In this document: positions 21,919 to 64,000 of the stretch, piece after piece
Numbering within the stretch: position 1 is the stretch's first letter
Layout: the number at the start of each line of letters is the position of its first letter
Source of the DNA: Beroe forskalii
Lineage: Eukaryota; Ctenophora; Nuda; Beroida; Beroidae
Reading direction: 5' to 3'
DNA length: 64,000 nt
Assembly: GCA_011033025.1 (NCBI GenBank)
Contig: WFMF01000693.1
Span: forward strand, 1-64,000
Notes under the pieces: generated by a model
Database searches by the model: none
Seen by the model: only the letters and a program-made list of their open reading frames with translations
Told to the model about the DNA's origin: nothing
Translations under genes and position numbers: made by a program

Positions 21919-35160
<13,242 letters not shown>

Positions 35161-36620
35161 CTGGGTTTAAACTTTAAGATTATACACTTAATTCAGGCTT
35201 TTTGTGTTATTGGAAAGTACCGCGACTCTCAGGACAGGTTTATAGTTATGGAATTATGAAATCCACTTTTCCATGCCCCATGGTTTGGATTTTATGGTTA
35301 GAAAGTTAGAATGTGCATTGTACAACTTAGTACTTCAGTATGAGCGATTGTTCCGATTTGAGAGGTGTTATACGTATTCCGTGATAATTAAATAAATCTG
35401 ATAAGAAGAACGAATCCTTGCTCCATCTTGCGGATAAGTTTTCTATAACAGCGGCATTTTCCGATTCTGTACATGCACCTGACAAGTGTTAAATAGTTAA
35501 ATTGTTGTAGTTTCATTGTGAGAGGTTTTGTAACTAGCAAAAATTGCAAACCGCTATATTATGCACCGAGCGCGAAGCGCGAGGGCATAATAACACATTA
35601 AGACCGAGGCCGAAGGCCGAGGTTTTAATGGAAGGTTTGCAGTTTTTGCGAGTTACAAAACCGAATTATGCAACGACAATACATGAAGGTATATATTTCG
35701 TAATCATGTATAATTCAAGCAACAATATGGGAATATGTAGTGTTATTGGCTTGTCTAGTATTTGAGCAATTGTAATAAGTGCAGCTACTGTATCCTTCAG
35801 TGTTAAATCTGCGGTCTGTCACCCCAGTGTTTATTTCTAACACCTCTCCCTCCTATAGTAAGGTCACGTTTTGAAAAACACCAGAGTACAATGCCAAAAT
35901 GGTTTTATTATAAACTGTAGTTCCACTTTTTTGGCACTGTAGTTGCACTTTTTAAAAAGTGTAACTGTTTTAGCGTGCATAATGGGTATAAAGGAGCACT
36001 GCGTAAACCTCCTTAGAAGTTGCATAATATACCATACGCAACGCGCACAAAAACGCGCGAAAATTTATATTGATCCAAATTCTTTTTGGGGGCCTTTGTT
36101 TATAATTTGGTCAAAATGAACACCGCGCGCGACTGAAAGTTTGCTAGAATTTCATCGAATTACTGACTTATTCCAACCACGCACAAGTTCAATAATTGAC
36201 TAGTTTACATTAATAAAACGTAGAAGTCTAGCTAGCAAACATGCACACGATTAACAAATGGCATAACAAAAGTGTAATTAACATTTGATTTTTGATCAGT
36301 GATAAAAGATGTTGGATTCGTGAACAGTATTAGGGCTTATTATAATTATTTTTAGGGCTATAATAGGGTGCGCGAAGTGTTGACATATTTCATGGGAATT
36401 CTTTCGTATTCCATTCAAGATCTTCTACATTTTATTGTACCAAGAGTCTGTGAAATGGAGATAAAATGTCTGAATAGAAGTACTGTAGAGTGTAGGTAAA
36501 TTGAGTTATCATTCTGATGTACCATCCATTTATTTACTCATTTCACTGTTTATGGCATAACATAATGCTTTAATGAAGTAATGAGATCATTTAGTTAACT
36601 AGTTAGTTGGCTTTATATGG
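35161..36620. other. Region upstream of the NBD1 exons; short hairpin repeats
   Basis: No exon for the TMD1-NBD1 linker could be identified. 35560-35640 holds compact hairpins (GCGCGAAGCGCG, GAGGCCGAAGGCCGAGG) of the same style as those in the Helitron-like tails. AT-rich otherwise. Confidence 0.45.
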
Positions 36621-39205: not shown

Positions 39206-39832
39206 AAAAACCTGTTTTATCGCTGTTTCCGTTGGCTTCATACTTCTTTTCTTCTTTATGGAGAAAGTTCTTGTTAATGATGACCTCGTTACTGAGGTTA
39301 AGGATAGCTGCTTTCTTGTGGAGATGAGTTATTTCGTCCGCGTTCAGAAAATTCTGAGAGGGGTTTATTATAAGTGTCATTACATCTTGGCACATTCAGG
39401 CATGAATTTTAGTTTTTGAAATTCTGAGATCAATCTGATGATAATTTAACAGAATATGTTTGAATGCTTTATAGGTATAAAATATTTGAATCAACATTTA
39501 GTTTACATAAAACACACAAAATTTGATGAATTGACACACATAATCATACTCATAGCCAACAGACATCGGACAAAAATGGTCACATGGTACTATTATATAT
39601 GAACACATCAGTAAAATTGCACATGGAATTACTTGACACTTGCATACGAACTTCTTACACATTTCATGAACAAATACTCTAAACTTCAATTCAGTAAGAA
39701 CATGCACATGAAGTAAGAACACATAAGTGATAAGAATAATCACATTGAGTAACATTGGATCCAGTACAAAAGTCAAGAGAACTTTCAATGAAAAACAAAT
39801 TTTCAGAAAAAGATAAGTTATAGTAAGACCCC

Positions 39833-45531: not shown

Positions 45532-45644
45532 CTCTATTCTACTCATGCTGTGAAGGACTTGGGGCACGAAGGAGAAGGTGTGGCCCAGAAAGATGTTGAT
45601 GTAGAGTTTTAGGGTATTGGCGATGGAGAGGTAGAAAAACAAAT
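45532..45644 (-). CDS. Variant exon V5, left arm (ABCC TMD1 helix segment)
   Basis: 113-nt exon. Its acceptor CTCAG follows a ~490-bp pyrimidine tract and its donor is GTAAAC. It enters in phase 1 and exits in phase 0 and ends FLGHTFSFVPQVLHSMSRIE. Its predicted protein is identical to the right-arm copy 63166-63278. The hydrophobic helix followed by P-Q-x-x-H-x-x-x-R-I-E matches the last TMD1 helix and start of the NBD1 linker in MRP4-like ABCC proteins (my recognition, not a computed alignment). Confidence 0.75.
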
Positions 45645-45647
45645 CTG

Positions 45648-46135
45648 AGGAAGGGAGGGTGAGGAAGAAGGGAGGGTGAGGAGGGGGGAGGGTGAGGAGG
45701 GGGGAGGGTGAGGAGGAAGGGAGGGTGAGGAGGAAGGGAGGGTGAGAAGGGAGGGAGGGTGAGGAGGAAGGGAGGGTGAGGAGGAAGGGAGGGTGAGGAG
45801 GAAGGGAGGGTGAGGAGGAAGGGAGGGTGAGGAGGAAGGAGGATGAGGAGGAAGGAGGGTGAGGAGGGAGGAGGGAGGGTGAGGAGGAAGGGAGGGTGAG
45901 GAGGAAGGGAGGGGTGAGGAGGAAGGGAGGATGAGGAGGAAGGGAGGGTGAGGAGGGAGGGAGGGTGAGGAGGAAGGGAGGGTGAGGAGGAAGGGAGGGT
46001 GAGGAGGAAGGGAGGTGAGGAGGGAGGGAGGGTGAGGAGGGAGGGAGGGGTGAGGAGGAAGGGAGGGTGAGGAGGAAGGGAGGATGAGGAGGAGGGGAGG
46101 GTGAGGAGGAAGGGGGAGAGGAGGAAGGAAGGGGT
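45648..46135. repeat. (GGAGGAAGGGAGGGTGA)n polypurine tract upstream of V5
   Basis: About 30 copies of a 14-17 bp unit. On the gene strand it reads CCTCCTCACCCTCCCTT, a ~490-bp pyrimidine tract ending at the V5 acceptor. The 187-235 codon frames here are repeat artefacts. Confidence 0.95.
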
Positions 46136-46139
46136 GTGG

Positions 46140-47219
46140 AAGATGGAGAAGAATGAAGAGGGGCTTAGACAATGGGAGAGGGCATGTGTGTAGATTGTGG
46201 CGTTGTTTTTTGTGGATATTTTGTGAATCTCATTAAAATCTTGCAATACATTTTGTCGCCATAAATGTAGTATACTGACGACTATAGACGACTTGAAAAT
46301 CCCGAAAACTGATAAGCCTTGCTTCGATTCATGGTTGATGCATGATGACTGAAGTGTTCAAATTGCTGCTTTCACCATTCCATTGATGACTACACCACCG
46401 TCTACCGTGCCTATCGCTGTTCATTCTTGAGATCAAGGCGGCAATGCTTATAAAACTGAGTCACGAAATATATTTAGCTTTGATTTCGAATTTAACTTCA
46501 CTTCGGACAACTATGCAATACCAGTAGTATGTGATCCGAACTCGATGTATAATATTCACAGTACACAACTGCACCTAGTGTTTAATTGACTGATGGTAGA
46601 AGTAGGCACCTAGTGGACAATTAGCTGATATAGTAGTAGGAGTAGGCAGGACAAAAACAACGACTAATGACTATACGACACATGCGCGAAACAACTGACT
46701 AACTTTTTCACATCACAGAATGAAAATCAAACAAAATATGCTTATTTATTTAGTGCTTGAAAATCGTAGTTAAATATCAAGCCACGAGGGAGGGAAATTT
46801 AGCGCCAACATTAAGTAAAAATGAATCACGATAAGAAATGCGCCGGCAGGCGCAATTGCTGTTCAGATTTAAAATCATCATGGAGGGATATGATCACAGG
46901 CTTTGTATTGAACTCGATTTATACGAGAAGATTATGATGAATCGTAAGCTGATAGATTGGAGGAAAGTTTGCTGTGTACGATAAATAGGCGGTTGATGAT
47001 AGCGACAGTCAGCCACTATCTGGAACTTTATTAAGAACTATCTAGAACTATGAGAGTATGAGAATTTGAAATTGTATCATGAAACCGCCCATTTCTCGCG
47101 CGTAGCCCATGCAATCAAACCTCTCTCAAGAAAAATAGGCGTTTAAGTGACACTCGCTTTGTACAATTGATAATCACGTCAACCTAACCGCCTATTCCCG
47201 ATCACAGCAAGGTCCGTAC
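46140..47219. other. Palindrome-arm spacer between V5 and V4
   Basis: AT-rich and matched at ~61726-62760 in the right arm. No further exon was recognised. Confidence 0.5.
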
Positions 47220-47332
47220 CTCAATCCGTCCGACACTGTGTATCACTTGAGGCACGGTGGTGAAGGTGTTACCCAGGAAGGCCACGATAAGGACCCGAAT
47301 CATTCCCAGCATACAGATCAGGAAGAACCAAT
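47220..47332 (-). CDS. Variant exon V4, left arm
   Basis: 113 nt, acceptor CCCCGCAG, donor GTACGG, phase 1 to 0. It ends FLGNTFTTVPQVIHSVGRIE. It differs from the right-arm copy 61613-61725 by at least one conservative residue (Ile for Phe near the start). Confidence 0.75.
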
Positions 47333-47334
47333 CT

Positions 47335-47950
47335 GCGGGGAGTCACCGGAAAATGCGGGATGACACCGGAAAATGGGGGAGATACCGGATAATGGGAGGA
47401 GTCACCGGAAAATGGGGGGAGTCACCGAGAAATGGGGGGAGACACCGGAAAATGGGGGGAGTCACCGGGAAATAAAGTCACCGGTGGGGGGGAGTCAACG
47501 GAAAATGGGGGAGTCACCGGGAAATGCGGGGAGACACCGGGAAATGGGGGAGTCGCCGGAAAATATTGGAGGAGTCACCGGGAAATGGGGGGAGTCACCG
47601 GAAAATGGGGGGAGACACCGGGAAATGGGGGGAGACACCGGAAAATGGGGGGAGACACCGGAAAATGGGGGGAGTCACCGGAAAATGGGGAGTCACCGAG
47701 AAATGGGGGGGGGGAGACACCGGAAAATGGGGGGAGTCACCGGAAAATGGGGGGAGACACCGGAAAATGGGGGGAGACACCGGAAAATTTGAGGAGACAC
47801 CAGAAAATGGGAGGAGTCACCGGAAATATGGGAGGGGCCACTTCAAAATGGGGGGAGTCACCGGGAAATATGGGAGGGGCCATTTCCAAATGGGAGGGGC
47901 TACTTCAAAATGGGAGGGGCTGCTTCAAAATGAGAGGAGTCACCGGGGGG
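47335..47950. repeat. GGGGGGAGTCACCGGAAAAT minisatellite upstream of V4
   Basis: About 30 units of 19-21 bp. The gene strand reads ATTTTCCGGTGACTCCCCCC, and the unit next to the exon (CCGGTGACTCCCCGCAG) contains the V4 acceptor itself. The 140-188 codon open frames here are artefacts. Confidence 0.92.
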
Positions 47951-48359
47951 GTTGAGTTTGCGACAAATTGGTACTTCGACGACATCAGCTCTGAATAATA
48001 TAATATCTAAGATAGATGTTATTTCCCTTCCTCTTCAGGAAGGAGCTCAATAGCATGATCTAACGACTGAAGATGGAAAATAGACCAGACCTAGCATTAG
48101 AAAATCTAAATATTATGAAAGGGGTTTAAAGCTCGAATCTAAGTTCTTCCGTCATGACTTTATCGAAAATTTCGGTAACCAAATCTCCGAGCAAATAATT
48201 TGTAATCAAACAATCTGTAGACGATCAAGGAAACAAACCAGATAAGACATTGCCAATCAACCATCGCTTAAACACACAAAAATCAGTCGATATGATAACA
48301 TCAGTCGATATGATAAAACGTCAGATAGATTTTAGTGAACATGCAGATTTAGACACTAC

Positions 48360-48472
48360 CTCAATTCGTAGCAAGCTATGTATGACTTGGGGGATGGCCA
48401 TGATAGCGTAGCCCAGGAAGGCGTTTAGGTACAGCATCAAAACGTGCAAGACAGCCATGATGAAGAAGATCT
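48360..48472 (-). CDS. Variant exon V3, left arm
   Basis: 113 nt, acceptor AATTCTCAG, donor GTAGTG, phase 1 to 0. It ends FLGYAIMAIPQVIHSLLRIE; the right-arm copy has Val for the Ile after PQV. Confidence 0.75.
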
Positions 48473-49899
48473 CTGAGAATTGATTGATATCAAAGAGCAG
48501 GCCCAAAAAGCAGGCCCAATATATTGTGGGGCAAAAATACTGGGGATCAAAATTTTGGGGGTTCGAAAATATGGGGATTGTTTTTAATATTACCAATGTT
48601 AACGTAATATGATGACAGCTTCATATAAGAAATTTTACGGGGTGCGACAATAGGTTGATTTTTCCATAAAATTCCCAAATTTCTTTGCACAAAAATATGA
48701 CGTGGGGAATTTAAAATCTTTTGAGCTTTTGGTGAATAATGAAGAATTGACGAATCAGCTACTGTAATCAGGCCGCGTGCTTTGGGCCAATAAAAATACA
48801 ACTACAAAAACGTGCCAACCTAACCTTGGGTAGCCCACTTTTCCGAATTGCAAGACTGAGAGTATCTATATCTGTCAACCTGACAGCGTGTATTCTAGTG
48901 CACTGCATGAGTTCTACCGTACGCCCCCTCAGCTTCTCCAAGTACTACTCAAGTAATTTGAGACAAGTCGTCACTGTTGCCACCAACAATCCACTTTCCA
49001 TGCAGCATTTTTATACGACATTACGACATATTACAGTAACTCATGCATGAATTTGTACTTTTAACTTTTTGTAAATTTAGGATAAAATTAAACGTGATTA
49101 TCATTATTAAAAAGCCTAAATGCCACGTCAAAACCATGACAGAATATGTCTCGTTTTATCGTTTGTATAAACTTATAAAGTCTTTAAAAGAACATATTTT
49201 AACATTCATGTAACTGATCATGTAAGAGCCTAGTGTGTAGACTCATTAATGGCCCCAAAACAAGTACTTATCTGATTGAATTTGCTTAAATGGTCGTTCG
49301 GTCATGCCATTATTCAAGAAGACACTGACTGTTATATAGTTATTTATGTATGTCAACTGTCAAGGTCGTACTAACTCCCTTGCATAAAAATGGGGGATCC
49401 GAATTTTTTCTTTCATTAATAAATCGCAACGGATCACACCACTCTTAACGATCGCAGTCATTTTAGTGGTCGATACTTCCAGAGTCCATGCGATAAAAAG
49501 TCGAAATGTGCTGTGCTGCACAGTGCACACACGCCAAAGATGTCATTCTATGATTTTGTACCATAGATTTTAATGGCCAAACAAAAACGCCATGCACCTT
49601 TATAAACTTACAACATTCACGTTCACTGGCATTTGGTTAGGAGTTCACTGTGACACACTTTACAGTTGCAACAGGACGTATATAGTAGAGACGCATAGGA
49701 TTTTAAACGATTTTAAAAAAGTTTAAACGCCAGCTTGGTGCACTTCCCGTGGTCTGATTTTCATGAAATTGATAATATCGTGCATTTAGATGACCTTAAG
49801 TGAATTGCCAAAATGTTTATCAAAAGCTCATTTCATCCCAATTTCGTAGGCAGTTTAATTTTCGCAACTCCGTCCTATGCGCCCCCACTAATATTGTAC
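48473..49899. other. Palindrome-arm spacer between V3 and V2
   Basis: Non-coding and matched by ~59261-60558 in reverse orientation. Short open frames are not conserved between arms. Confidence 0.5.
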
Positions 49900-50010
49900 C
49901 TCCATCCTATGGATGCCATGAATTGCCAGGAAGTGATGTCACCATGTAGCCGATATACACACAGAGATACAGCCGTATACCATCCGCCAGAGATATGAAG
50001 AAAAACATAT
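49900..50010 (-). pseudogene. Variant exon V2, left arm, with frame-shifting 2-bp deletion
   Basis: Matches the right-arm exon 59148-59260, with the same acceptor (TCCCCAG) and donor (GTACAA), but is 111 nt because of a 2-bp net loss after TCACTTCC. The frame then runs into TAG before the donor. This variant is dead in the left arm. Confidence 0.75.
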
Positions 50011-50054
50011 CTGGGGAGAGGGTTCAATCTGAGAAGACTTCATACCTTCATGAA

Positions 50055-50170
50055 GTCTGGTGTCAAGAGGAAATGGTGTCAAAGTGAATGGTGTCAAGAC
50101 TCAAGGGGTGCTGGTGTCAACGTGTCATGCTAAAGTGGTGTCAGAGTGAATTGGTGTCAAATTGAAGCGA
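50055..50170. repeat. GGTGTCAA-type repeats upstream of V2 (left arm)
   Basis: Five to six irregular GGTGTCAAAGTGAAT-like units, mirrored at ~58990-59115. Same core as the repeats at 2161-2375 and 13490-13995. Confidence 0.7.
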
Positions 50171-50245
50171 AGTCATCCGTCAAATTGGCTACGTGAAATG
50201 GTAGCTATTTGGGGATGGAGATAGTGTATTTTAATATACAAACTA

Positions 50246-50386
50246 CAGTACAGAGTTGCTGTAGTTTGGACCGTACATATCTCAATTCTCAGGGTTAGGA
50301 GAGAACAACACCAGCCATGGTGTTGTTCTCTCCTAACCCTGAGAATTGAGATATGTACGGTCCAAACTACAGCAACTCTGTACTGT
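50246..50386. mobile_element. Near-perfect ~140-bp hairpin, left arm only
   Basis: ACAGTACAGAGTTGCTGTAG ... its exact complement, arms of ~63 bp around CCAGCCATGG. The homologous place in the right arm (~58880-58940) lacks it, so it is a recent insertion or was lost there. MITE-like. Confidence 0.8.
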
Positions 50387-52600
50387 TAACTCAGCAACTC
50401 AGCGTTACGAAATTAGCAACACTGGATCCAAATTCCTTCTGCAACCAAGGTCACGTCACTAGAGTCACTTACATAATTTAATGATTATCGTCATGGTCTC
50501 AGAAATTGGATGAGAAACTTAGGAGCTACGATATCACAGTTTATCATATTTTTGATTAAATTGTTACTAAGAAATTCATCATATTACGAAATAATACGAA
50601 AGTTTTATGGAGGTATATGAACTTAAAATGAGAAATCTCACTTTAAAATCACTTAGATCTCTTTTAAAATCATATGTTCTGCGTCAAATAGGTGAATAAG
50701 TAGAGTCTAATGAAGTAATAAGTATAAGATCAATGCGAAGAATACTACCTAACTAAATGAAATTTATGAGACACTTAATTACGAATTTTATCAAAAAACA
50801 CAAATTAAGTGGGTAAGAAATGATGAAAATGATGATGGAATCCAATGTCTTATCTATAGAGGTGTATGGGTATACTACAAACATAACAAAATACTGTATT
50901 CGATTTTCTAATTCAAGGATTGACATAAGAGGCAGAAGAGACTAAACTGTGAATCATCAGCAGTTGCCCAACAGTTGTAAGGTCTCCCTGCCATCTGCGA
51001 TGTAGGTGTACCATCAGCAGGTGACAAAGGGAAACGGAGGGGTTTCGGCCCACGTACCCCTCACAGCTTACAACTGCAAGGCTGGGCCACCCAGGACTCC
51101 GGATTCCTGAGCAACACAGTTTAGAGGGAAGGGGGAAGAAAAAGAAAGAGTTCAGTAGAGGTGGAAGATCAATGATTGCTAAAATCACACAGTTACTTTA
51201 GAAGTAATAAAATATCTATGTAGTATAAGGTAAGTATTCTTTTATTGGCAGCAATTTTACACTTTTAGTTTTACCTCTATTCTTCTAGCACAGTAAAATA
51301 GATCAGGGACAATGGTGAGGAAATGTCCAAGATATATATACATAGATACTGGCTAATCGCATCCTCCACGCATATGTAGAAAAGCACATCTGTTGGTATC
51401 AATGGAGGTTTTAAACTTTACAACACTACTTTATACAATCAAATTTGAGGATGTCGAAATGATGAATATGTAAACCACGTGACGGGTACAGCGAAGGGGG
51501 ATAGGGGGACCATGGCGCTGAAAAGTCTCGGGGGCTAGTCTGCATGCGGTTGCCATTCTCTTCAGATCTGACTTGGGCTTTGTGGGACACACATTAAGAA
51601 GACTGGCAGACACCATCACAAATAAGATAAGTTTTAATGTCTGTTGTGTGTTGGTTTCCACGCACATCACTCAACCATACCTAACTTAATGCAGACTAAC
51701 CCCCATAGCTCGGCATCCTCAAAATTTGATTGTGCATGTAGTGCTGTGGAGGTGGGACTGCAATTGATAAATAGATTAGTTGGTCGATCAACTGATTGAT
51801 TGACTAATAACACTATGGCAGCATGCAGGGTAATGTCTATTCGAGTCTACTTCAGTCAACTTGTTTACATGATCAGTTCCCTGTTTTTGTGGGCTGATTT
51901 TTGCTGACATACTTGATACCTGAGCCTTGTTTTTGGGCAGGGTTTGGACTCGATAGTATTTCCGAACGTTCTTTGACTTTTGATAGTGGCCAAAAGGGCA
52001 TGGTTGAATCACACATCTAAAAATCCTTTAAATTGATGTACAAAGGTACTGCTACGCAATTAGATGATGATCAGTTTAATAACGTACAGGTCTATAGTGT
52101 GTGGCAGACCTATACAATTTGACTCTACTTTCAATTATCTTGATATCAAATGCCTTGACTGAAATAGAAATGTGTGATTCTCCCCAAGTTCCGATCCACT
52201 ACTGAGGTAGGAATTCTAAATCATATAAACATAAACATAAATGTACTTATTATTTTAGTTTTAATAACTTCTATTTTAAGACAATATTATTGTAATGATT
52301 TGATATTATGATATGAGATTTTGCTGCATGCCATAGGTAAACAGTTATATTATGAGACATTAGAAAATTTTAAAGGTTAAATCCTAAAAGTCAAAGTGCA
52401 CAACCCTGCATAATGCACATTTGCAACCTAATTATCACCAACTCACCCACATGTTTGCTACTGTGTGTTGTCGGTATAATTGGAATATAAATGTAACAAA
52501 AATAAGCGGGAATGGAAATGGCAGTGAAAAATATGTACATATGCTGATATTTTCTTAATTTCATCAACTTTATATATACCTTGACTTAAAACACCATATA
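50387..52600. other. Inner end of left arm and start of loop
   Basis: AT-rich. Arm homology ends at ~51390. 51430-52012 contains minus-strand open stretches (one begins MIQPCPFGHYQKSKNVRKYY) of unknown nature, possibly transposon debris. No confident gene. Confidence 0.4.
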
Positions 52601-52760
52601 TACTGCCAAAATGTTTATTTCAGGTGTCTGCCGGATTACTTTGCGTCTCATCTGGGTCTCTGCTTTTGAGATGCTGAGAGTGGCGATCGTTCCAGCTAGC
52701 TCCCATTGCGCACGGATTGGTGCTCTGGTTCCCTTGTCCCCTGGAGCGCCTCCTTCCATC

Positions 52761-55700
52761 ATCATGACGAAAGGCAAACGACCAGCCCAGTCTGGAGATC
52801 TGAAAACCCCCTGCTGCAACCGCAGTCCCAAACAAGAGAGCTGCAAGGTCAGCTGGGAACTCACCTGCTTCTTCTCCAGTGAGTCGTAAAGACTCTCTCC
52901 CTCCCAGCAAGCCACCAACATCAAGCAGCTCAGTCGCTGAAGACCTTGATGAAACACTGCAGATAGATGTCCTAGAAACAAGCTCTAGCACACCAGCAAA
53001 CATCAGTCTGCTAGCACCCACTGCTGACAAACTGTCCCTGTGCTGTGTTTGACCGGAAAAGCACAGACATCACATGCCCAAGTGCAATGAGAAGCTGTAG
53101 CACACATAGAGTGTTGTAACCTGAGACTCACACGCAAGCTGTTGCCAAGAAGTAGGGCCTAAATGGGAATGCCCCTGGTGCTACCAGCCCTCAGTACCAA
53201 ATCCTGATGTCAAAAAATGGGAATGAGACTGTAGAGTCGTTGAAAGCATTCATGTCTGAGCATCCTCACTGACTTCAGAACTGTTCTGAGATGCTAAGGG
53301 ATGGTGCCTCAAGTGTAGAGTTCTTCAATCACCACATCAAACATTTGCTCATTGAGGAAACCAAATTTAAAGATCATAATGCAAACAATCTCTGATCTTG
53401 CCACGGATGTGAAGCTAATTAAGGATGACATCAGGAAATGTCACTAAGACTAGCCAAAGGGACATCTGAATTTGAGGATATGAAATCCCACATCTCCACT
53501 GGCATAGTTAAGGATCACACTGCTGGATTCAAGGCTATTCGAGATGAGATTCATCAGTTGAAGGACCAAATGAACTCCTTGATCAGTAAGCCAGCCCAGG
53601 AAATTTCTCCGGAGCTATAAACAAAATCTCAAGATTCCCAATGGAAGAGATTAGTAAAATTGGGGAGAATGTTGCTGCATTCTCCAACTAAGTGTCCGAC
53701 ATGCAGCAGTCAATGACAGCAAACACCACAAGAAGCGTCAGGCCACCATCTCCTGCTGCTATGCAACCCAACACTACATCACCACACATGAGAAAAAAGG
53801 AGGATCTATGTACACCGTTCACGATGTATAAAGACGATGCTGTCTCACTCGATCTCAAAGACAGACTCCTTGGCTTTGTCAATGGCAGAGAAAGTACATT
53901 CAAAACCATTGGATCAGAAAACTCCAGAGACGTCTTGTATTACGGAGGCTATAGCTACAGATATGCTGGAGGTAAACATGAGGCTCAGCCCATCCCTGAT
54001 GAAATCAAGAGCCTCATTGACTCTACGTCACCAAAACCGTTGGACGGTTGGTCAAGTAACCCCCCTCTGGTTTGGATGTGATCAGCCCATTTTGTCTCTT
54101 TTCAGGTTCCGTTGTCACATCCAAACCCGCGGGGGTTACTTGACAACTTCATCAATAACAACTGTGTTATCTTGACAGATGTATGTGGTTTGAGACCCAT
54201 GTTAACTGCCCAAAGGCAGTTTGGACTCATTACTTGCCCTCACGTAGTCTGAACCCACGTAACTAACCCACACACAAGCCGAGCCCACGTAACTTACCCT
54301 GACAAAGTCCAAAAACGTTATTCTAACTTGGAATTACTAGAATTGATATATTTTCTTAATTTCTAAATCGTCCACATAATTCGTGCTTAAATATAGCAAC
54401 CAGATCTAATTTCACGTACATAAGTCGTATTTGAACTTATTTCAACGTAACCAAGTCGAAAATCCCGTGTAAATATCAATTTCTTCAAATCCCCTAATTT
54501 CTACGAAACGTCCGTGTGTACTCACGTGCTGAAGTATAGCACATGCATCTTATTTCATGTGCATTAGTCGTATTTGAATTCATTTCAACGTAATCAAGTC
54601 GAAAATCCCGTGTAAATATCAATTTCTTTAAATCCCCCTAATTTCTACACAAAACGTCCGCGTGAACTCACGTGCTCCACTAGTTCATCGTATATTTCCC
54701 ATCCCTATTCACTGTGAGACATAGAAAAACCATTATCAGTAGACCATCGTATCACAGAATAGGATTACAATTACACAATTTTTCGTTATAAACGTAATTT
54801 CAATCAATTTGCAGTTCAATTTTTAGAAGCCTCTCACGACAACAATCTTCGACCGATCGCCCTGAAACTCGTTTTATAGCTAAATCTTAAGGTCTTAAAG
54901 CATCATATCAAAGTAAAACATAATCCGATGAAAAATCTTTGAGTCGGAGATGTCCAAAGTAGCGCAAAATAGCATTCTATCGCAAAATACGCTATTTTAG
55001 TGGTTTTACGCGATTTTTATGACGTCATCACAGCACCCAAATAGGCTCAAACCAACTTCCCATATAGCCTAAGCCACAATTCCGCCTTAGCACAACATAC
55101 TTTGACCGGTCTCATCTCAAGATAAGTCGCAGTTCTTGACATCTCACTCGTTTAAGTTTTGTCCAATAATTTGGAAATCGATTTTTAACCGTACCTTAGA
55201 AAATCGCGTATATCTCGATGAAAAATCGAGATAACCCAATAATCCATATGATTTTCTGAAAGCTCTTTAAATTTGCTAAAAAATTGTTCCGAAAAATCAG
55301 AGAGCTATCTCCTTTCCTTCTTTGTGAAAAATGCGCTCGAAAATGACCTATTTTCGCTAAAAAATGCAATAAAATTTCGCTAAGTTGATGACGTCATAGT
55401 GACGTGAAAATGACGTCACCAGAACTTCTCACATAGCCTAAGCCACACTCCCATCTTAGATCAACAAAACTTGACCTCGATCATGGCTCTACCATTTCCC
55501 GTTCTTGAGATCTCATCGTTTTAAATTGGGTCCCAAATTATCAGCTCTTATTATTATTATTAATCTTATTATATATTATATCACCCTGTGACACTGAATT
55601 CTCTAACTTATAGCCCTGGCCAGTTACGTTACTGTAGCGTGCGATCTAAGTATACGCGTATCAATAAGAACGGTTGTCCTAGACCTAAAATTTTACGACG

Positions 55701-56460
55701 AATCGTTCTAGATAGGTCTCGACTCTCTATTTCTTTTTCTTTTTTTTCTTACCGCGGGGGGTTACCGCCCTGGCCAGGGCGGGAATAAAGCCACATCTCC
55801 CTAACCCAGAAGCTGTCTTCAACTCATGTCTGATAAGCCGCTACTCGACAGGCTCAAACTGCATACCTCCTCATAGGGATGACGAAGCAGCTATTGATCC
55901 TGAATCAGACATAGTAACTGTTTCAATAGGAGCTGAAAGGACAATGACGTTCGCCAACAACGATGGAACCTCATCCGAGCAGAAGGTGCTTAAGGACAGA
56001 AGTGTTCTTGTTTCTTCGAGATTCGCACAGGACTTCTGGGTTCACAGCATTGAACCATGCGAATCATCAGAGATAAGGTACAGCTTCACATTCCGCCACA
56101 TAGCCCCACACTTCATAAACAGCACAGTTATCCTAGGTGACTCGAACACAGCTAACATCAAGTTCGGGAGTGGGGTTGTAAGCTCGGTGCTTGGATGCCA
56201 GGGAAACGGGTTAAGGTTGGTCACATTGATGCCATCCCTGAACCTGAGAAAATCGGACCCTACAGAATATAGTTATACACACCGGTATTAACAGTATTAA
56301 CTGTAGCCCGAGATTCAAAAAGTCCAACAGAGCCCTCATTGAGGGCATGGAGGAAAAAGTGAGGAAAATATGTGAAATGTACCCAAAGGCGAAGGTCTAC
56401 ATAAGTCTCCTCCTTCCAACACGGCTACCAGTAAAAGAAATAGTTCAGTAAAAGAAATAG
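52761..56460 (+). pseudogene. Decayed element ORF: zinc-finger/coiled-coil region, AlkB-like oxygenase, SGNH-like hydrolase
   Basis: In order: a Ser/Thr-rich start (MTKGKRPAQSGDLKTP at ~52764); a stretch with one frameshift (DSLPPSKPPTSSSSVAEDLD); a C-x-C/H zinc-finger-like remnant (CCV ... PEKHRHHMPKCNEKL) at ~53040; a coiled-coil-like piece at 53438-53620; then an AlkB-like domain split into 53692-54060 and ~55795-56130. The second piece has the Fe(II)/2-oxoglutarate signature: PHRDDE, FWVHSIEP, and Arg in RYSFTFRH. An SGNH-like start follows (VILGDSNTANIKFG, ~56125-56170), with KVYISLLLPTRLPV at ~56390-56440. Stops and frameshifts make it non-functional. It is probably a retroelement accessory ORF (inference). 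Confidence 0.65.
54048..55790. mobile_element. Insertion splitting the AlkB-like ORF
   Basis: After GGTTGGTCAAGTAACCCCCC the AlkB frame stops, and it resumes at ~55795. A 40-bp inverted repeat (GTCAAGTAACCCCC ... GGGGGTTACTTGAC) occupies 54048-54150. The rest is AT-rich with TGACGTCA motifs and ends in ACCGCGGGGGGTTACCGCCC, TGGCCAGGGCGG, resembling the GC hairpin end of the Helitron-like copies. Likely a related but distinct family. Confidence 0.6.
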
Positions 56461-57418
56461 TTTATTTTACATCAACAATCAAATAATATGTCCGATATGT
56501 TAGATTAGAAAATGTACATGGAGTACTCAGGTACTTGAGATTCTGTGTTTTTTCAATCAGGCACCTTAAAGTTAAACTTACAAATATTTTTTTCGGTGGG
56601 AGTCGTAACAATTGTTGTTACCTGCAAAGTATATCAGCCCTACAGCAGATGGTAAATAGTAAAGAATACAGCTTAAACATCAATTTCATTAGGTATTTTA
56701 ATCAACGTGATATTAACTTTCTACATAGAATTTCGCAGATCTATTTTTCTACCTCTCAATGGTTTCCAACCTGAAACTTTTCCTCAATTTGTGTGTAGGA
56801 CACTGCTTTGCCTTCATTCCCCAAGTTATCTTTAGTCTTCAACGTATCCAGGTTCCTAGATGTAAAATACATATAATCAGACCATCGTGTTTTTGAGTTT
56901 GCATGTACATAATTTACAAATGACTCGTCGTTCTCAAGTTTGATTGACACTTGATGTAAATTACTCAATCTAAATAAGATTTATTTGGATAAATCGGTGC
57001 TTGTCCATAATTCGCATCAAACTAATCACTACGACGGTTTCATTAAAATCAGAAGTAGTAAGAATGTTAAGGTAATGAAAGGTGAACAGTTGAATACTAA
57101 ACTTGACTTTAACTCTGGCTTTTATCGTCGACTACAGCCCCATTGCTTTGAATCTTGCCTGTTTTTGAGGTCTTCTAAACCTATCTTATACGTTCTACAA
57201 ATTATTAGCTGCCAAAGTACTTTTCTTCTACTTGAGACTACTGGTCTTAAATAGATAATTTCATTCCTATCCTCCTCATTGGGCTGTAACCGGTCAAGAA
57301 TAGTTTGACGAAAATATGGACATCTGTCCCCAGTTCTCGGTATAACATTCTTGTCTTTTTCTCCCCGACCACTTGCAACTACTGTGGATCAGCTGATTGA
57401 AACAAGTACTCTTATTTA
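56461..57418. other. Loop sequence between the AlkB relic and V1
   Basis: AT-rich. Open frames at 56756-56968 (minus) and 56985-57254 (plus) lack recognisable domains and splice context. Confidence 0.4.
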
Positions 57419-57530
57419 GTTATTATTTGGTCGTTTTCTGGTCGTTTTCTGGTCGTTTTCTGGTCGTTTTCTGGTCGTTTTCTGGTCGTTCTCTGGTCGT
57501 TTTTCTGTCGTTTTTTGGTCGTTTATCTGT
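57419..57530. repeat. TGGTCGTTTTC 11-bp tandem repeat upstream of V1
   Basis: About ten copies of TGGTCGTTTTC, T/C-rich on the gene strand, ending 25 bp before the V1 acceptor. Confidence 0.9.
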
Positions 57531-57554
57531 CGTAATAAATGTAAACCCCCGCAG

Positions 57555-57667
57555 ATTTGTTCTTCTTCATGTCGATGGCGGCAGTATTGAGAGGTTATAT
57601 TAACGTCTTCCTGGGGAGAACCATGCTTTCAATACCTCAAGTTCTACACAGCTTCTCCAGGATCGAG
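57555..57667 (+). CDS. Variant exon V1 (palindrome loop, single copy)
   Basis: 113 nt, acceptor CCCCCGCAG, donor GTACGG, phase 1 to 0, ending FLGRTMLSIPQVLHSFSRIE. It lies ~0.7 kb inside the palindrome breakpoint, so it has no left-arm partner. Confidence 0.72.
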
Positions 57668-59147
57668 GTACGGAGAATAATGCCGTGTACAGCCTGATTA
57701 TGACGTCACTACTCCAAAATGCCTACTGTTTGTGAATGGAATTTAGTCTGTGAAATGTGAATTGCGTGGCCTGATCAAATACTCTATTCAGATTGATTCT
57801 GTTGCAATGATTCAAGGTGACTATTTTCACAATCATAAGTTTCTTGTAGATGTGAAGGTAAGGTAAGTTTCTTCAATTCCAAGTCTAGGTACTCTAGTTC
57901 CAAGTCTAGTTACAGCATTGGGATGAATATAAGCATATATTGTACGATGCAATGTCGAGTTCAATATGGATCGAAATGATGGCCTACAATTATATTATAG
58001 GGTGAGCAGAATAAAGGTATGCTTAAGCATTAAGCATGCAATAGGTATGCATGTGAAAACTGAAGAACTGAGGGAACCTTATAATATAATTGTTTGGTAA
58101 CTTTGTTTGGTAACATGTGTTGATGATTGATCGTCTCCTGCCAGTAATCTTGTGAGTCCAATTCTTCTAAACATGGGTCGCTTGCTCTTGGGACGGCCTG
58201 CCTATGAATTCTTCAGCTTTGATTCCGGAGTGAACCGGATGCCGTATTGCAATAACCTTCATATCCTAGTTACATAAAACTTTTATATAGTTCAATCAAC
58301 TTTCATACAAAATTTAGAAAAAACGAACTTTCACTGCTGACCCCACTCACCTCCAGTAAGACAAGCAGATGTACTTTTCTACATTATGCATGGAGGATGC
58401 GATTAGCCTATATCTATGTATATATCTGGAAATTTCCCCCTTCTATTTATTTTGCTGTAGATATTTTCTTACTTCTAAAGTAACTGTGCGATTTCCATCA
58501 TCATTTCCATCATTTTTACCCACTTAATTTGTGTTATTTTGATAAAGATCGTAATAAAGTGTCTCATAAATTTCATATAGTTAGGTAGTTTTCTTCGCAA
58601 TGATCTTATACTTATTACTTTTTTAGACTCTACTCATTAAGATTTAAGTGATTTTAAAATGAGATTTCTCATTTTTAGTTCATGTACCTTCATAAAACTT
58701 TCGCATTATTTCTTGATATGATGAATTTCCTGGTAACAATTAAATCAAAAATATGATGAACTGTGATATCGTTGCTCCTTAGTTTCTCATCCAATTTCTG
58801 TGATGATGACGATAATCACTAAATTATGTAAGTGACTCTAGTGACGTGACCTTGCTTGCAAGAGCAGCGGATCCAGCGTTTCTTATTTCATAACGCTGAA
58901 GCCATGGTGTTTGATGTTTGGTCCCCATATACACTTCAAATAGCTACCATTATTTAACTTTTCACGTTGCCAAATTTGCTGATGACTTCGCTTCACTCTG
59001 ACACCAATTCACGCTGACACCACTTTATCATGAAAAGTTAACACCAACCCCCCTTGAGTCTTGACACCATTCACTTTGACACCATTTCCTCTTGACACCA
59101 GACTTCATGAAGGTATGAAGTCTTCTCAGATTGAACCCTCTCCCCAG
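57668..59147. other. Spacer between V1 and V2; right-arm start at ~58370
   Basis: Non-coding. The inverted homology with the left arm begins at ~58370 (TACTTTTCTACATTATGCAT ... versus 51395-51375). 58990-59115 holds the TTGACACCA-type repeats that precede the V2 acceptor. Confidence 0.5.
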
Positions 59148-59260
59148 ATATGTTTTTCTTCATATCTCTGGCGGATGGTATACGGCTGTATCTCTGTGTG
59201 TATATCGGCTACATGGTGACATCACTTCCGCAAGCAATACATGGCATCCATAGGATGGAG
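59148..59260 (+). CDS. Variant exon V2, right arm (intact)
   Basis: 113 nt, acceptor TCTCCCCAG, donor GTACAA, phase 1 to 0, ending YIGYMVTSLPQAIHGIHRME. The most diverged variant, but it keeps P-Q-x-x-H-x-x-x-R-x-E. Confidence 0.72.
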
Positions 59261-60477
59261 GTACAATATTAGTGTGGGCGCATAGGACGGAGTTGCGAAA
59301 ATTAAACTGCCTACGAAATTGGGATGAAATGAGCTTTTGATAAACATTTTGGCAATTCACTTAAGGTCATCTAAATGCACGATATTATCAATTTCATGAA
59401 AATCAGACCACGGGAAGTGCACCAAGCTGGCGTTTAAACTTTTTTAAAATCGTTTAAAATCCTATGCGTCTCTACTATATACGTCCTGTTGCAACTGTAA
59501 AGTGTGTCACAGTGAACTCCTAACCTTATGCCAGTGAACGTGGATGTTATAAGTTTATGAAGGTGCATGCCGTATTTGTTTGGTCACTAAAATCTAATTC
59601 TATGGCACAAAATCATACTTCATAGAATGACATCTTTGGCGTGTGTGCAGTACAGCACTTTTCGACTTTTTATCGCATGGACAGTGGACACTGGAAGTAT
59701 CGATAACCATACAGGCGGCGATTGTTGAGATTGGTGAGATCCGTTGCGATTCTAAAATTCGTATCGCTCATTTTAATGCGAGAGAGCTAGAACGACCTTG
59801 AAATACATAAAATATAGCAGTCAGTGTCTTCTTGAATAATGGCAAGACCGAATGACCATTTAAGCAAATTCAATCGGATAACTACATGTTTTGGGGCCAT
59901 TAATGAGTCTACACACTTACATGCTCTTACATGATTGTTAAAATATGTTCTTTTAAAGACTTTATAAGTTTATACAAACGATAAGACGAGACATCTGTCA
60001 TGGTTTTGACATGCCATTTAGGCTTTTATTATAATCATAATCACGTTTAATTTTATCCTAAATTTACAAAAAGTTAAAAGTACAAATTCATGCATGAGTT
60101 ACTGTAATGTCGTGATGACGTATAGCAATGCTGCATGGAAAGTGGATTGTGGGTGGCAACAGTGACGACTCGTCCCAAATTACTTGAGTAATACTTAGTA
60201 GTTGTATCATTATTGGCTCGAAGCACGTGGCCAGATTAGCTTATCGGTCAATACTTCATTATTCATCAAAAGATGTTAAATTCCTGCAATATTTTTGTGA
60301 AACGAAGTTTAGGAATTTCGCGGGAAAAAATCCACTTTTTTGTCGCACCCCATGATGATAAAACCATCATGTGACGCCATCATCATACTTTAACATGAGT
60401 AATGTTGAAAACAATACCCATATTTTATAACCCCCAAAATTGTGATCCCCAGAATTATTGTCCCACATTTTATTGGG
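59261..60477. other. Spacer between V2 and V3
   Basis: Non-coding; mirror of ~48540-49899. Confidence 0.5.
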
Positions 60478-60540
60478 CCTGCTCTTTGGGCCTGCCCTTT
60501 GGGCCTGCTCTTTGGGCCTGCTCTTTGGGCCTGCTCTTTG
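60478..60540 (+). repeat. GGGCCTGCTCTTT 13-bp tandem repeat upstream of V3
   Basis: Five copies, ending 19 bp before the V3 acceptor. The left arm has only about two copies (48490-48520), so the array length differs between arms. Confidence 0.85.
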
Positions 60541-60558
60541 ATATCAATCAATTCTCAG

Positions 60559-60671
60559 AGATCTTCTTCATCATGGCTGTCTTGCACGTTTTGATGCTGT
60601 ATCTGAATGCTTTCCTGGGGTACGCTATCATGGCCATCCCCCAAGTCGTACATAGCTTGCTACGAATTGAG
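60559..60671 (+). CDS. Variant exon V3, right arm
   Basis: 113 nt, acceptor AATTCTCAG, donor GTAGTG, phase 1 to 0, ending FLGYAIMAIPQVVHSLLRIE. Confidence 0.75.
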
Positions 60672-61160
60672 GTAGTGTCCTAAATTAATCTGCATGTAAA
60701 CTCAAATTTATCTGACGTTTTATCATATCGACTGATGTTATCATATCGACTGATTTTTGTGTTATTAAGCGATGGTTGATTGGATATGTCTTACTTGGTT
60801 TGTTTCCTTGATTGTCTACAGATTTATTGATTACACATTATTTGACTGGAGATTTGGTTATACAAATTTTCGATGATATCATGACGGAAGAACTTAGATT
60901 CGAGCTTTCAACTTCTTTCATATTATGTAGATCTTTCTAATGCTAGTTCCGGTCTATTTTCCATCTTAATTTGTTGATCATTCTATTGAGCTCCTTTCTG
61001 GCCGGAAATGACGTCTATATATAAAATTCGGCTGATGTCGTCGAAGTATCAATTTGTCGCACACTTTAACCCCCTATTTTGGTTACACAGTACTTTGATG
61101 CTCCTTATCTTTTGATCCTCGCGCGATAAGATGGCAGTCGAGACTTGCAATTATGACGTC
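60672..61160. other. Spacer between V3 and the V4 repeat
   Basis: Non-coding and AT-rich; mirror of ~47970-48359. Confidence 0.5.
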
Positions 61161-61164
61161 ATTT

Positions 61165-61600
61165 TCATAGTTTGAAGTGGCCCTCCCATTTTGAAGCAGC
61201 CCCTCCCATTTCCCGGTGTCCCCTCCCATTTTGAAGCAGCCCCTCCCATTTCCCGGTGACTCCCCCCATTTTGAAGCAGCCCTTCCCATTTTGAAGCAGC
61301 CCCTCCCATTTCCCGGTGTCCCCTCCCATTTTGAAGCAGCCCCTCCCATTTCCCGGTGACTCCTCCCATTTTGGAGCAGCCCCCTCCCATATTTTCTGGT
61401 GTCCCCTCCCATTTTGGAGTGACCCCTTCCATTTTGAAGTGGCCCCTCCCATATTTCCCGGTGACTCCCCCCATTTTGAAGCAGCCCCTCCCATTTCCCG
61501 GTGACTCCTCCCATTTTTAAGTGGCCCCTTCCATTTTGAAATGGCCCCCTTTTTCGGTATCTCTTCCCATTTTGAATTGCCCCCTCCCATTTTTTCCGGT
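61165..61600 (+). repeat. Pyrimidine-rich minisatellite upstream of V4
   Basis: About 20 units mixing CCCCTCCCATTTTGAAGCAG and CCCCTCCCATTTCCCGGTGA, ending at CCGGTGACTCCCCGCAG. It is related to the left-arm array but with a different unit composition, so the arrays evolved independently after the inversion. Minus-strand frames of 107-201 codons are artefacts. Confidence 0.9.
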
Positions 61601-61612
61601 GACTCCCCGCAG

Positions 61613-61725
61613 ATTGGTTCTTCCTGTTCTGTATGCTGGGGATGATTCGGGTCCTTATCGTGGCCTTCCTGGGTAACACCTTCACCACCGTGCCTCAAGT
61701 GATACACAGTGTCGGACGGATTGAG
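61613..61725 (+). CDS. Variant exon V4, right arm
   Basis: 113 nt, acceptor CCCCGCAG, donor GTACGG, phase 1 to 0, ending FLGNTFTTVPQVIHSVGRIE. The start encodes WFFLFCMLGMIRVLIVA, a clear transmembrane segment. Confidence 0.76.
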
Positions 61726-62765
61726 GTACGGACCTTGCTGTGATCGGGGAATAGGCGGTTAAGTTGACGTGATTATCAATAATTGTGCAAAGCGAGTGTC
61801 GCTTAACCGCCTATTTCTCTTGAGAGAAGGTTAATTGCTGGGGCTGCCCGGCTGCGTACGAGAAAAAGGCGGTTTCATGATACAATTTCAAATTCTCATA
61901 GTTCTAGATAGTTCTTAATATAATAGTTCCAAATAGTGGCTGACTGTCGTAATTAAAGCGTTATCATCAACCGCCTATTTATCGTACACAGCAAACTTTC
62001 CTCCAATCTATCAGCTTACGATTCATCATAATCTTCTCGTATAAATCGAGTTCAATACAAAGCCTGTGATTATATTCCCTCGATGATGATTTTAAATCTG
62101 AACAGCAATTTCGCCCGCCGACGCATTTCTTATCGTGATTCATTTTTGCTTAATGCAGGCGCTTAATTTCCCTCCCTCGGGGCCTGATATTTAACCACGA
62201 TTTTCAAGCACTAAAGTTATAAGCATATTTTGTTTGATTTTTCTCCTGTGATGTGAATAAGTAAGTCAGTTGTTTCGCACATGTGTCGTATAGTCATTAG
62301 ACGTTGTTTTTGTCCTGCCTTCTTCTACCATCAACCAATTAAACACTAGGTGCAGTTGTGTACTGTGAATATTATACATCGAGTTCGGATCACATACTAC
62401 TGGTATTGCATAGTTGTCCGAAGTGAACTTTAATTCGAAATCAAAGCTAAATATATTTCGTGACTCAGTTTTATAAGCATTGCCGCCCTGATCTCAAGAA
62501 TGAACAACGATAGGCACGGTAGACGGTGGTGTAGTCATCAATGGAATGGTGAAGGCATCAATTTGAACACTTCAGTCATCATAAATCAACCATGAATCGA
62601 AGCTAGGCTTATCAGTGTTCGGGATTTTCAAGTCGACTGTCGTCAGGATACTACATTTATGGTGACAAAAATGTATTGCAAGATTTTAATGAGATTCACA
62701 AAATATCCACAAAAAACAACGCCACAATCTACACACTACATGCCCTCTCCCATTGTCTAAGCCCC
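61726..62765. other. Spacer between V4 and the V5 repeat
   Basis: Non-coding; mirror of ~46150-47219. Confidence 0.5.
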
Positions 62766-62784
62766 TCTTCATTCTTCTCCATCT

Positions 62785-63160
62785 TCCACACCCCTCCCTT
62801 CCTCCTCACCCTCCCTTCCTCCTCACCCTCCCTCCCTCCTCACCCCTCCCTCCCTCCTCACCCTTCCTCCTCACCCTCCCTCCCTCCTCACCCTCCCTTC
62901 CTCCTCACCCTCCCTCCCTCCTCATCCCCTCCCTTACTCCTCACCCTCCCTTCCTCCTCACCCTCCCTTCCTCCTCACCCTCCCTTCCTCATCACTCCTC
63001 CCTTCCTCCCACCCCTCCCTTCTTCCTCACCCCTCCCTCCTCACCCTCCCTCCTCCTCACCCCCTTCCCCTCACCTCCCTTCCCCACCCTTCCTCCTCAC
63101 CCCTCCCTTCCTCCTCACCCTCCCTCCCTCCTTTCCTCAGTTCCTCCTCACCCTCCCTTC
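62785..63160 (+). repeat. (CCTCCTCACCCTCCCTT)n polypyrimidine tract upstream of V5
   Basis: About 25 units ending in TTCCTCAG at the V5 acceptor. Shorter and reordered relative to the left arm. The 172-232 codon frames through it are artefacts apart from the V5 residues at their ends. Confidence 0.95.
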
Positions 63161-63165
63161 CTCAG

Positions 63166-63278
63166 ATTTGTTTTTCTACCTCTCCATCGCCAATACCCTA
63201 AAACTCTACATCAACATCTTTCTGGGCCACACCTTCTCCTTCGTGCCCCAAGTCCTTCACAGCATGAGTAGAATAGAG
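63166..63278 (+). CDS. Variant exon V5, right arm
   Basis: 113 nt, acceptor TTCCTCAG, donor GTAAAC, phase 1 to 0, ending FLGHTFSFVPQVLHSMSRIE. Predicted protein identical to the left-arm copy. Confidence 0.76.
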
Positions 63279-64000
63279 GTAAACAACTTTATGTGTGTAC
63301 CATCCTTAAGGATTAGAGTAAAGATAGTAATGCGGCAAAGAGCATGGGATAGTGACGTCATAATCAGAATTTAGAGTGATGAATTGATGACGTCATTGTC
63401 GTAGTTTAGAGTGATCAATTGTCGACGTTCAATCTTCAGTGAGAAGATCATTGAGCAGCTTAAAATGTTAGGCGTCTTAGAAAAATACTTTCACCTACAT
63501 TCTTCTTTTCTTGAAATATATCTTTGAGTGTCTAACGTGTCTTTTAATGAAAATTTGTTTTTCATTGACTCTTGTACTGGATCCAATGTTACTCAATGTG
63601 ATTATTTTTATGTGTTCTTACTTCATGTGCATGTTCTTACTGAAGAGAAGTTTAGAGTATTTGTTCATGAAATGTGTAAGAAGTTCGTATGCAAGTGTCA
63701 AGTAATTCCATGTGTAATTTTACTGATGTGTTCATATATAATAGTACCACGTGACCATTTTTGTCCGATGCCTGTTGTCTATGATTATGTGTGTCAATTC
63801 ATCAAATTTTGTGTGTTTTATGTAAACTGAATGTTGATTCAAATATTTTATACCTATAAAGCATTCAAACATATTCTGTTAAATTATCATCAGATTGATT
63901 CCCCAGAATTTCAAAAACTAAAATTCATGCCTGAATGCCAAGATGTAATGACACTCTATAATAAACCCTCTCAGAATTTCTGAACGCGGACGAAATAACT
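63279..64000. other. Outer right arm, no gene seen
   Basis: TGACGTCA motifs at ~63355 and 63390, then AT-rich sequence matching 39325-39830 and 45240-45530. The open frames 63511-63830 are mirrored at 39498-39869 but start differently and contain arm-specific indels. No domain recognised. Confidence 0.45.

What the first reader, a model, noticed from the sequence alone, without database searches (positions are those of the whole stretch)
45532..63278. Cassette of five paralogous 113-nt exons encoding alternative ABCC transmembrane-helix segments: candidate mutually exclusive exons
Seen: nine copies of five variants (57555-57667; 59148-59260/49900-50010; 60559-60671/48360-48472; 61613-61725/47220-47332; 63166-63278/45532-45644). 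All have AG acceptor and GT donor, enter in phase 1 and exit in phase 0. Eight are exactly 113 nt; the ninth has a 2-bp lesion. All encode a hydrophobic helix ending P-Q-[VA]-x-H-x-x-x-R-[IM]-E, with the preceding residues very different between variants. Known: that motif position resembles the end of TMD1 in MRP4-type transporters, next to the substrate pathway. Inference: 113 is not divisible by 3, so exactly one exon must be chosen per transcript. The left-arm set is upstream of and co-oriented with the NBD1 exons at 35 kb. A Dscam-like exon choice swapping a transporter helix would be a new way to diversify substrate range. I know of no such description, but cannot search.
Basis: partly seen in the sequence, partly recalled or inferred. 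Interest (0 to 1): 0.88.

Follow-up and report, generated by a model that had tools for sequence, protein, structure and literature searches.

The report
Swappable helix exons in transporter gene
A transporter gene in an unidentified organism, probably an animal, carries at least six alternative versions of one membrane helix as separate, interchangeable-looking exons; this kind of exon choice is already known in related transporter genes, so it is a good new example rather than a new mechanism.

Summary
The nine exon copies exist as described; a tenth intact one (V0, 56739-56851) and one decayed variant per arm were missed. Each variant corresponds to transmembrane helix 6 of TMD1 of an MRP4-like ABCC transporter (MRP4 351-387). 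Six variants give six different triplets at three published substrate-pocket positions. Entry is phase 1, exit phase 0: two variants together give a stop in 15 of 15 ordered pairs, none also gives a stop, and V5 joins 14 downstream exons in frame. Between arms the exons are under purifying selection (dN/dS 0.09) while introns diverge 9-12%. Genome searches find all ten copies on one 67.5-kb contig; a paralogue has a single helix 6, apparently sharing an exon with helix 5.

Mutually exclusive splicing is the best explanation, but no transcripts were available. The claim of no prior description is wrong: tandem exon arrays in metazoan MRP genes are published (eight exons in Drosophila MRP). Open: no helix 1-5 exons were found on the contig; the inverted arms flank a dispersed repeat and may be joined haplotypes; each gene copy has at least one apparent lesion. 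New member of a known kind.

The parts
56739..56851 (+).
   Evidence: AG/GT sites, open frame, same length and phase
57555..57667 (+). V1, variant TM6 exon
58349..58437 (+). decayed variant exon (relic), right arm
   Evidence: weak profile match (E 0.011), frame broken, no recognisable PQ..H..R end
59148..59260 (+). V2, variant TM6 exon, intact
60559..60671 (+). V3, variant TM6 exon
61613..61725 (+). V4, variant TM6 exon
63166..63278 (+). V5, variant TM6 exon
63975..64000 (+). start of constitutive exon E1 of the right-arm copy (continues beyond the window); one nucleotide shorter than the left copy here, so out of frame
51319..51409 (-). decayed variant exon (relic), left arm
   Evidence: weak profile match (E 0.006), frame-shifted; an end like the variants (VPDLFYCARRIE, then GT) remains in another frame
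49900..50010 (-). V2', left-arm copy, 111 nt, frame broken
48360..48472 (-). V3', left-arm copy
47220..47332 (-). V4', left-arm copy
45532..45644 (-). V5', left-arm copy, identical to V5 in the exon
39212..39353 (-). E1, first constitutive exon after the cassette (linker TMD1-NBD1)
35412..35478 (-). E2
32858..35171 (-). exons E3-E9, NBD1 and start of the linker to TMD2
29521..32678 (-). exons E10-E14, linker and first part of TMD2
29190..29287 (-). E15, TMD2 exon that reaches an in-frame stop before any GT donor; its end carries a 22-nt direct repeat spaced by 31 nt
21922..29070 (-). remaining TMD2 and NBD2 exons; the last three exons occur twice, partly decayed
51420..52560 (.). dispersed multicopy repeat between the arms (tested from 51420 on, so its left edge is not fixed); an AlkB-type ORF at 55716-56288 also lies between the arms

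Best explanation
A tandem array of at least six 113-nt exons, used one at a time (mutually exclusive splicing), supplies alternative versions of transmembrane helix 6 of TMD1 in an MRP4-like ABCC exporter of an unidentified organism, probably an animal. SHOWN from sequence: collinear match to MRP4 351-387, equal length and phase, splice sites, in-frame joining to the downstream gene, stops on double use or skipping, purifying selection between arms, no further copies found in the assembly. INFERRED: that one exon is chosen per transcript (frame or NMD quality control, possibly helped by RNA pairing), and that the choice changes substrate range, because helix-6 pocket residues differ between variants. 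The part of the gene from the cassette on exists twice, in divergent inverted orientation around a dispersed repeat (the right copy is cut by the contig end). Whether that is a real duplication or two joined haplotypes is open, and exons for helices 1-5 were not found on the contig.
For: Exons confirmed and extended. TM6 aligns to MRP4 (8sx7) 352-401 without gap, running on into the next exon. MRP4 TM6 residues L363, L367 and F368 line the ligand pocket (PMC10202912 and PMC11948813, passages read); by that alignment V0 to V5 read LLC, GVF, LVY, LAF, VAF, LIF there (sequences). 15-exon model V5' to E14, 614 residues, open in one frame with all phases matching. Double use gives a stop in 15 of 15 ordered pairs of right-arm variants; skipping also gives a stop; each of six alone joins the left copy's E1 without a stop. 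Arms (V3-V5): 8 differences in 339 exon nt against 501 in 4330 aligned non-exon nt, p=2e-9; dN/dS 0.09. Between variants dS is saturated in 9 of 15 pairs and dN/dS is 0.20-0.61 in the other 6. Ten copies on one contig; the paralogue on C395 has one TM6, inside a longer open frame with TM5.
Against: No transcript data. The helix-6 stretch by itself is a weak match to MRP4 (9.5 bits, i-E 2.7 for 8sx7; 1.0 bit for 8bjf) and is supported mainly by its position. No TM1-TM5 exons found on the contig with probes from human ABCC4 (recalled), C395 and C540. Left copy: V2' broken; E15 reaches a stop before any GT donor. Right copy: E1 out of frame by 1 nt; E6-E8 not matched at E 0.01, and its last 1.1 kb at the contig end looks error-rich or decayed. 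Several donors are weak. A docker-selector RNA system was not found: of the tested flanks only V1's pairs strongly with the intron after V5, through a motif common in this window. Variability shows no helical-face periodicity at 100 degrees: 4566 of 5000 shuffles reach the observed value.
Confidence: 0.72

Rival explanations
1. The palindrome is an assembly artefact: two haplotypes of one gene were joined head to head at a dispersed repeat. The cassette is real, but there is one gene, and the join cut off the TM1-TM5 exons of both. (Compatible with the best explanation; it rivals only the two-copy reading.)
For: Both arms lose the gene upstream of the cassette, with repeat sequence between them. 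No other copy found in the assembly. Short contig ending inside the gene with poor sequence. Another inverted repeat, about 98% identical, on C691.
Against: 9-12% mismatch in aligned non-exon sequence with many indels is large for alleles (inference). V2' and the repeat in E15 look like real mutations rather than read errors (inference).
Confidence: 0.45
2. Decaying duplicate: the array belonged to a working gene, but both copies here are 5'-truncated pseudogene pieces that no longer make protein.
For: No TM1-TM5 exons found; broken V2', E15 and right E1; half-decayed duplicate of the last three exons.
Against: Exons diverge less than half the intron rate, P=0.002 (0.04 without the V3-V4 intron), nonsynonymous sites alone P=0.001, so both copies were probably constrained for much of their separate history; 8 of the 9 stated copies and V0 are intact.
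Confidence: 0.25
3. The exons are ordinary tandem duplicates of which only one is used and the rest are idle.
For: One relic per arm shows that copies do die; no expression data.
Against: V3-V5 conserved between arms with 6 synonymous and 2 nonsynonymous changes; six variants keep length, phase and six invariant residues at 27-62% amino-acid identity.
Confidence: 0.12

Closest known systems
Tandem mutually exclusive exon arrays in metazoan MRP (ABCC) genes, e.g. Drosophila MRP/CG6214
   Same: ABCC exporter, tandem homologous exons, one per transcript; PMC6071210 gives 8 exons for Drosophila MRP and cites Yue 2017 for independent arrays across phyla (passages read). Splice variants of CG6214 and its mosquito and moth orthologues are mentioned in PMC4234516 (passage read).
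   Different: Here MRP4-like by score, while the Drosophila paper's title calls its gene an MRP1 homologue (reference list); helix 6 alone is swapped. Yue 2017 is not held and I did not look up Grailles 2003, so whether their exons cover the same helix is unknown to me. The inverted double copy has no counterpart in the passages I read.
Dscam1-type mutually exclusive splicing
   Same: One exon chosen from a tandem array with invariant flanks (here inferred)
   Different: Far smaller array, a transporter helix instead of immunoglobulin domains (recalled); docker-selector pairing not shown here
ABCC4/MRP4
   Same: Best solved-structure match; helix 6 and linker align without gap
   Different: The human gene has a single helix 6 (recalled); vertebrate MRPs lack such arrays (recalled from the Yue 2017 abstract)

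Membership tests
Tandem mutually exclusive exon arrays of metazoan MRP genes | Lies in an ABCC/MRP gene | tested here: met
Tandem mutually exclusive exon arrays of metazoan MRP genes | Two or more adjacent homologous exons of equal length and phase with splice sites | tested here: met
   six of six intact right-arm variants 113 nt, phase 1 to 0
Tandem mutually exclusive exon arrays of metazoan MRP genes | Inclusion of none or two destroys the frame | tested here: met
   stop in 15 of 15 ordered pairs and on skipping (taking the upstream exon to end in phase 1)
Tandem mutually exclusive exon arrays of metazoan MRP genes | Constitutive exons on both sides | tested here: inconclusive
   downstream met; upstream TMD1 exons not found on the contig
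Tandem mutually exclusive exon arrays of metazoan MRP genes | Transcripts show one and only one exon | not testable with these tools
Docker-selector (competing RNA structure) splicing | A docking site pairs with a selector beside each variant | tested here: inconclusive
   one strong pairing (V1 downstream, 0 of 200 shuffles as low) through TGACGTCA, which occurs 21 times against 0.72 expected; V3 upstream (right arm) 10 of 200; V5 downstream flanks overlap the probe; the other flanks 32 to 198 of 200
ABCC4/MRP4 subfamily | Closest to MRP4 among ABCC | tested here: inconclusive
   MRP4 315.6 bits, MRP2 306.3, MRP3 269.7, MRP1 269.6; NBD1 alone prefers MRP3 and MRP2; no tree was built
ABCC4/MRP4 subfamily | No TMD0 domain before TMD1 | not tested
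   the N-terminal part of the gene was not found

The most novel reading that the evidence does not exclude
The transporter is a split gene: the two inverted arms are real, opposite-strand libraries of helix-6-to-C-terminus modules, and the missing TM1-TM5 part is supplied from another transcript by trans-splicing, as in mod(mdg4) (recalled), so that helix choice and copy choice are both combinatorial.
Probability: 0.03. Interest if true: 0.85.

Novelty: new member of a known kind. Interest (0 to 1): 0.36.

Why it matters
Helix 6 forms part of the MRP4 ligand pocket, and the six variants carry six different residue triplets at the three published helix-6 contact positions. If used, the array is a natural set of pocket swaps in an otherwise constant exporter, so it tests directly whether exon choice tunes substrate range in ABCC pumps. 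In the same genome a paralogue keeps helix 6 in one open frame with helix 5, so the introns that isolate the helix were either gained with the array or lost in the paralogue.

Tried and rejected
Docker-selector pairing: scanned 114 windows in the introns before V0 and after V5 against five inter-variant introns, then tested 20 flanks of 150 nt around ten exon copies (V0 taken one base off there). V1 downstream stood out, V3 upstream weakly, and the V5 downstream flanks overlap the probe itself; the V1 pairing uses a motif common in the window. Not claimed.

Helical-face test of variability: negative.

First splice of the downstream exons had exon ends off by one and showed a stop; corrected ends gave the open model.

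Rfam (gathering thresholds) and tRNA scans of the window: nothing.

An ABCC-like TMD1 fragment on C170 looked like a possible missing 5' part. No NBD match, and no helix-6 match of note, within 956001-968000; no DNA match of its first 4 kb to C795; left as a lead.

Organism: not identified. 216 Mb, 1134 contigs. An intronless 1510-aa ABC ORF on C3 looks fungal to me (inference), so the assembly may be mixed.

Literature: all 10 searches used.
Full report
OBSERVATION. Eight are 113 nt; 49900-50010 is 111 nt with a complex lesion. A sixth intact variant, V0 at 56739-56851, was missed, and both arms also carry one decayed, frame-shifted variant. The right-arm order is V0, V1, relic, V2, V3, V4, V5; the left arm has relic, V2', V3', V4', V5'. 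Thus there are ten recognisable copies, nine of them intact, besides the two relics.

GENE. On the minus strand V5' continues in frame through 14 more exons (E1-E14), 614 residues without a stop, with every splice phase matching; several donors are weak. The best solved-structure match is MRP4 (315.6 bits), just above MRP2 (306.3); NBD1 alone prefers MRP3 and MRP2. Pfam finds the ABC ATPase and TMD2. The variant exon aligns without a gap to MRP4 residues 351-387 and the alignment runs on into E1; taken alone that stretch is weak (9.5 bits for 8sx7, 1.0 for 8bjf), so it is the position that carries the assignment to TM6 of TMD1. No tree was built, so 'MRP4-like' rests on scores.

WHY ONE AT A TIME. 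113 is not a multiple of 3. Any of the 15 ordered pairs of the six right-arm variants gives a stop inside the second exon. Skipping all gives a stop in E1, taking the upstream exon to end in phase 1. Each of the six alone joins the left copy's E1 without a stop. This shows that productive mRNA needs exactly one; it does not show how the cell achieves it. A docking-site search gave no consistent system: one strong pairing (V1 with the intron after V5) uses TGACGTCA, which occurs 21 times in the window against 0.72 expected.

SELECTION. Between arms V3, V4 and V5 differ at 8 of 339 nt, against 501 of 4330 aligned nt of the four neighbouring non-exon stretches, one of which includes the relic (p=2e-9, counts). 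dS is 0.083, dN 0.008, ratio 0.09, from 6 synonymous and 2 nonsynonymous changes. V2 was left out of both because of its lesion; V0 and V1 have no left partner. The exon count is below half the intron rate (P=0.002; P=0.04 if the minisatellite-rich V3-V4 intron is dropped), so both copies were probably constrained for much of their history. Between variants dS is saturated in 9 of 15 pairs; the other 6 give dN/dS 0.20-0.61.

FUNCTION. In human MRP4, L363, L367 and F368 of TM6 contact PGE1, cAMP, methotrexate and PGE2, with sulindac contacting L363 and L367; L363A and L367A have lower ATPase activity, and mutations of all three affect transport of a fluorescent cAMP to varying degrees, less than W995 of TM12 does (PMC10202912 and PMC11948813, passages read). 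Placing V0 to V5 on that numbering by the gapless alignment gives LLC, GVF, LVY, LAF, VAF and LIF. A change of substrate range is an inference from this. Variability has no helix-face periodicity.

GENOME CONTEXT. The window is contig C795, 67,545 bases, of a 216-Mb assembly. The last 3.5 kb hold E1-E5 and part of E9 of the right-arm copy; E6-E8 were not matched at E 0.01, and the final 1.1 kb looks error-rich or decayed. Genome-wide protein searches place ten cassette exons on C795; the only other TM6 match in that search is a single one on C395 (the tool scores only its best candidates). That paralogue has TM5, TM6 and the linker in one open frame, apparently one exon, with no array in the 8 kb fetched, which serves as an internal control.

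PROBLEMS. Probes for TM1-TM5 from human ABCC4 (recalled), C395 and C540 find no credible exon on C795. Genome-wide, TMD1 matches outside C795 fall on C395, C540, C183, the fungal-looking C3 and a fragment on C170. The arms flank a dispersed multicopy repeat, present from 51420 at the latest, some ten bases beyond the left arm's last match (my query began at 51420). Two haplotypes joined at a repeat would explain why both arms lose the same upstream part; a real inverted duplication is not excluded. The left copy also has a broken V2' and an E15 that reaches a stop before any GT donor, where a 22-nt direct repeat spaced by 31 nt lies; the right copy's E1 is out of frame by one nucleotide. I describe these and mended none.

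PRIOR WORK. PMC6071210 (passages read) lists MRP with 8 mutually exclusive exons in D. melanogaster and reports, citing Yue 2017, independent tandem exon arrays in MRP genes across phyla, with competing RNA structures. PMC9013439 (passages) and PMC4234516 (passages) mention the Drosophila case, and PMC2680897 lists Grailles 2003 in its references (passage). Yue 2017 is not held; from memory its abstract names several invertebrate phyla and early chordates.

VERDICT. A real, constrained, frame-locked array of alternative TM6 exons: a new member of a known kind, with a helix choice that makes the substrate-range question unusually direct.

Noticed in passing
window 2934-3227 and 5210-5599 (-): Kelch and BACK domains of a KLHL-type gene.
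   Followed up: no
window 21922-25248 (-): The last three exons of the left ABCC copy occur twice; parts of each copy are decayed.
   Followed up: partly
window 26572-27585 (-): RNase H ORF of a mobile element inside a late intron of the left ABCC copy.
   Followed up: no
window 55716-56288 (+): AlkB-type 2OG-Fe(II) oxygenase ORF between the arms.
   Followed up: no
window, 21 sites: TGACGTCA occurs 21 times against 0.72 expected, several of them in repeated contexts.
   Followed up: partly
L017/L018, C691 485-496 kb: Another inverted repeat, about 98% identical, beside ABC-transporter-like exons; possibly the same kind of assembly or duplication event.
   Followed up: partly
L003/L004, C3 442-446 kb: Intronless 1510-aa full ABC transporter ORF that looks fungal (inference), suggesting a mixed assembly.
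   Followed up: no
L041, C170 near 960.5 kb: ABCC-like TMD1 fragment with no NBD match within 956001-968000.
   Followed up: partly
window 61726-61855 (+) and 47090-47219 (-): Possible hairpin just downstream of the V4 donor, present in both arms by eye; not folded.
   Followed up: no
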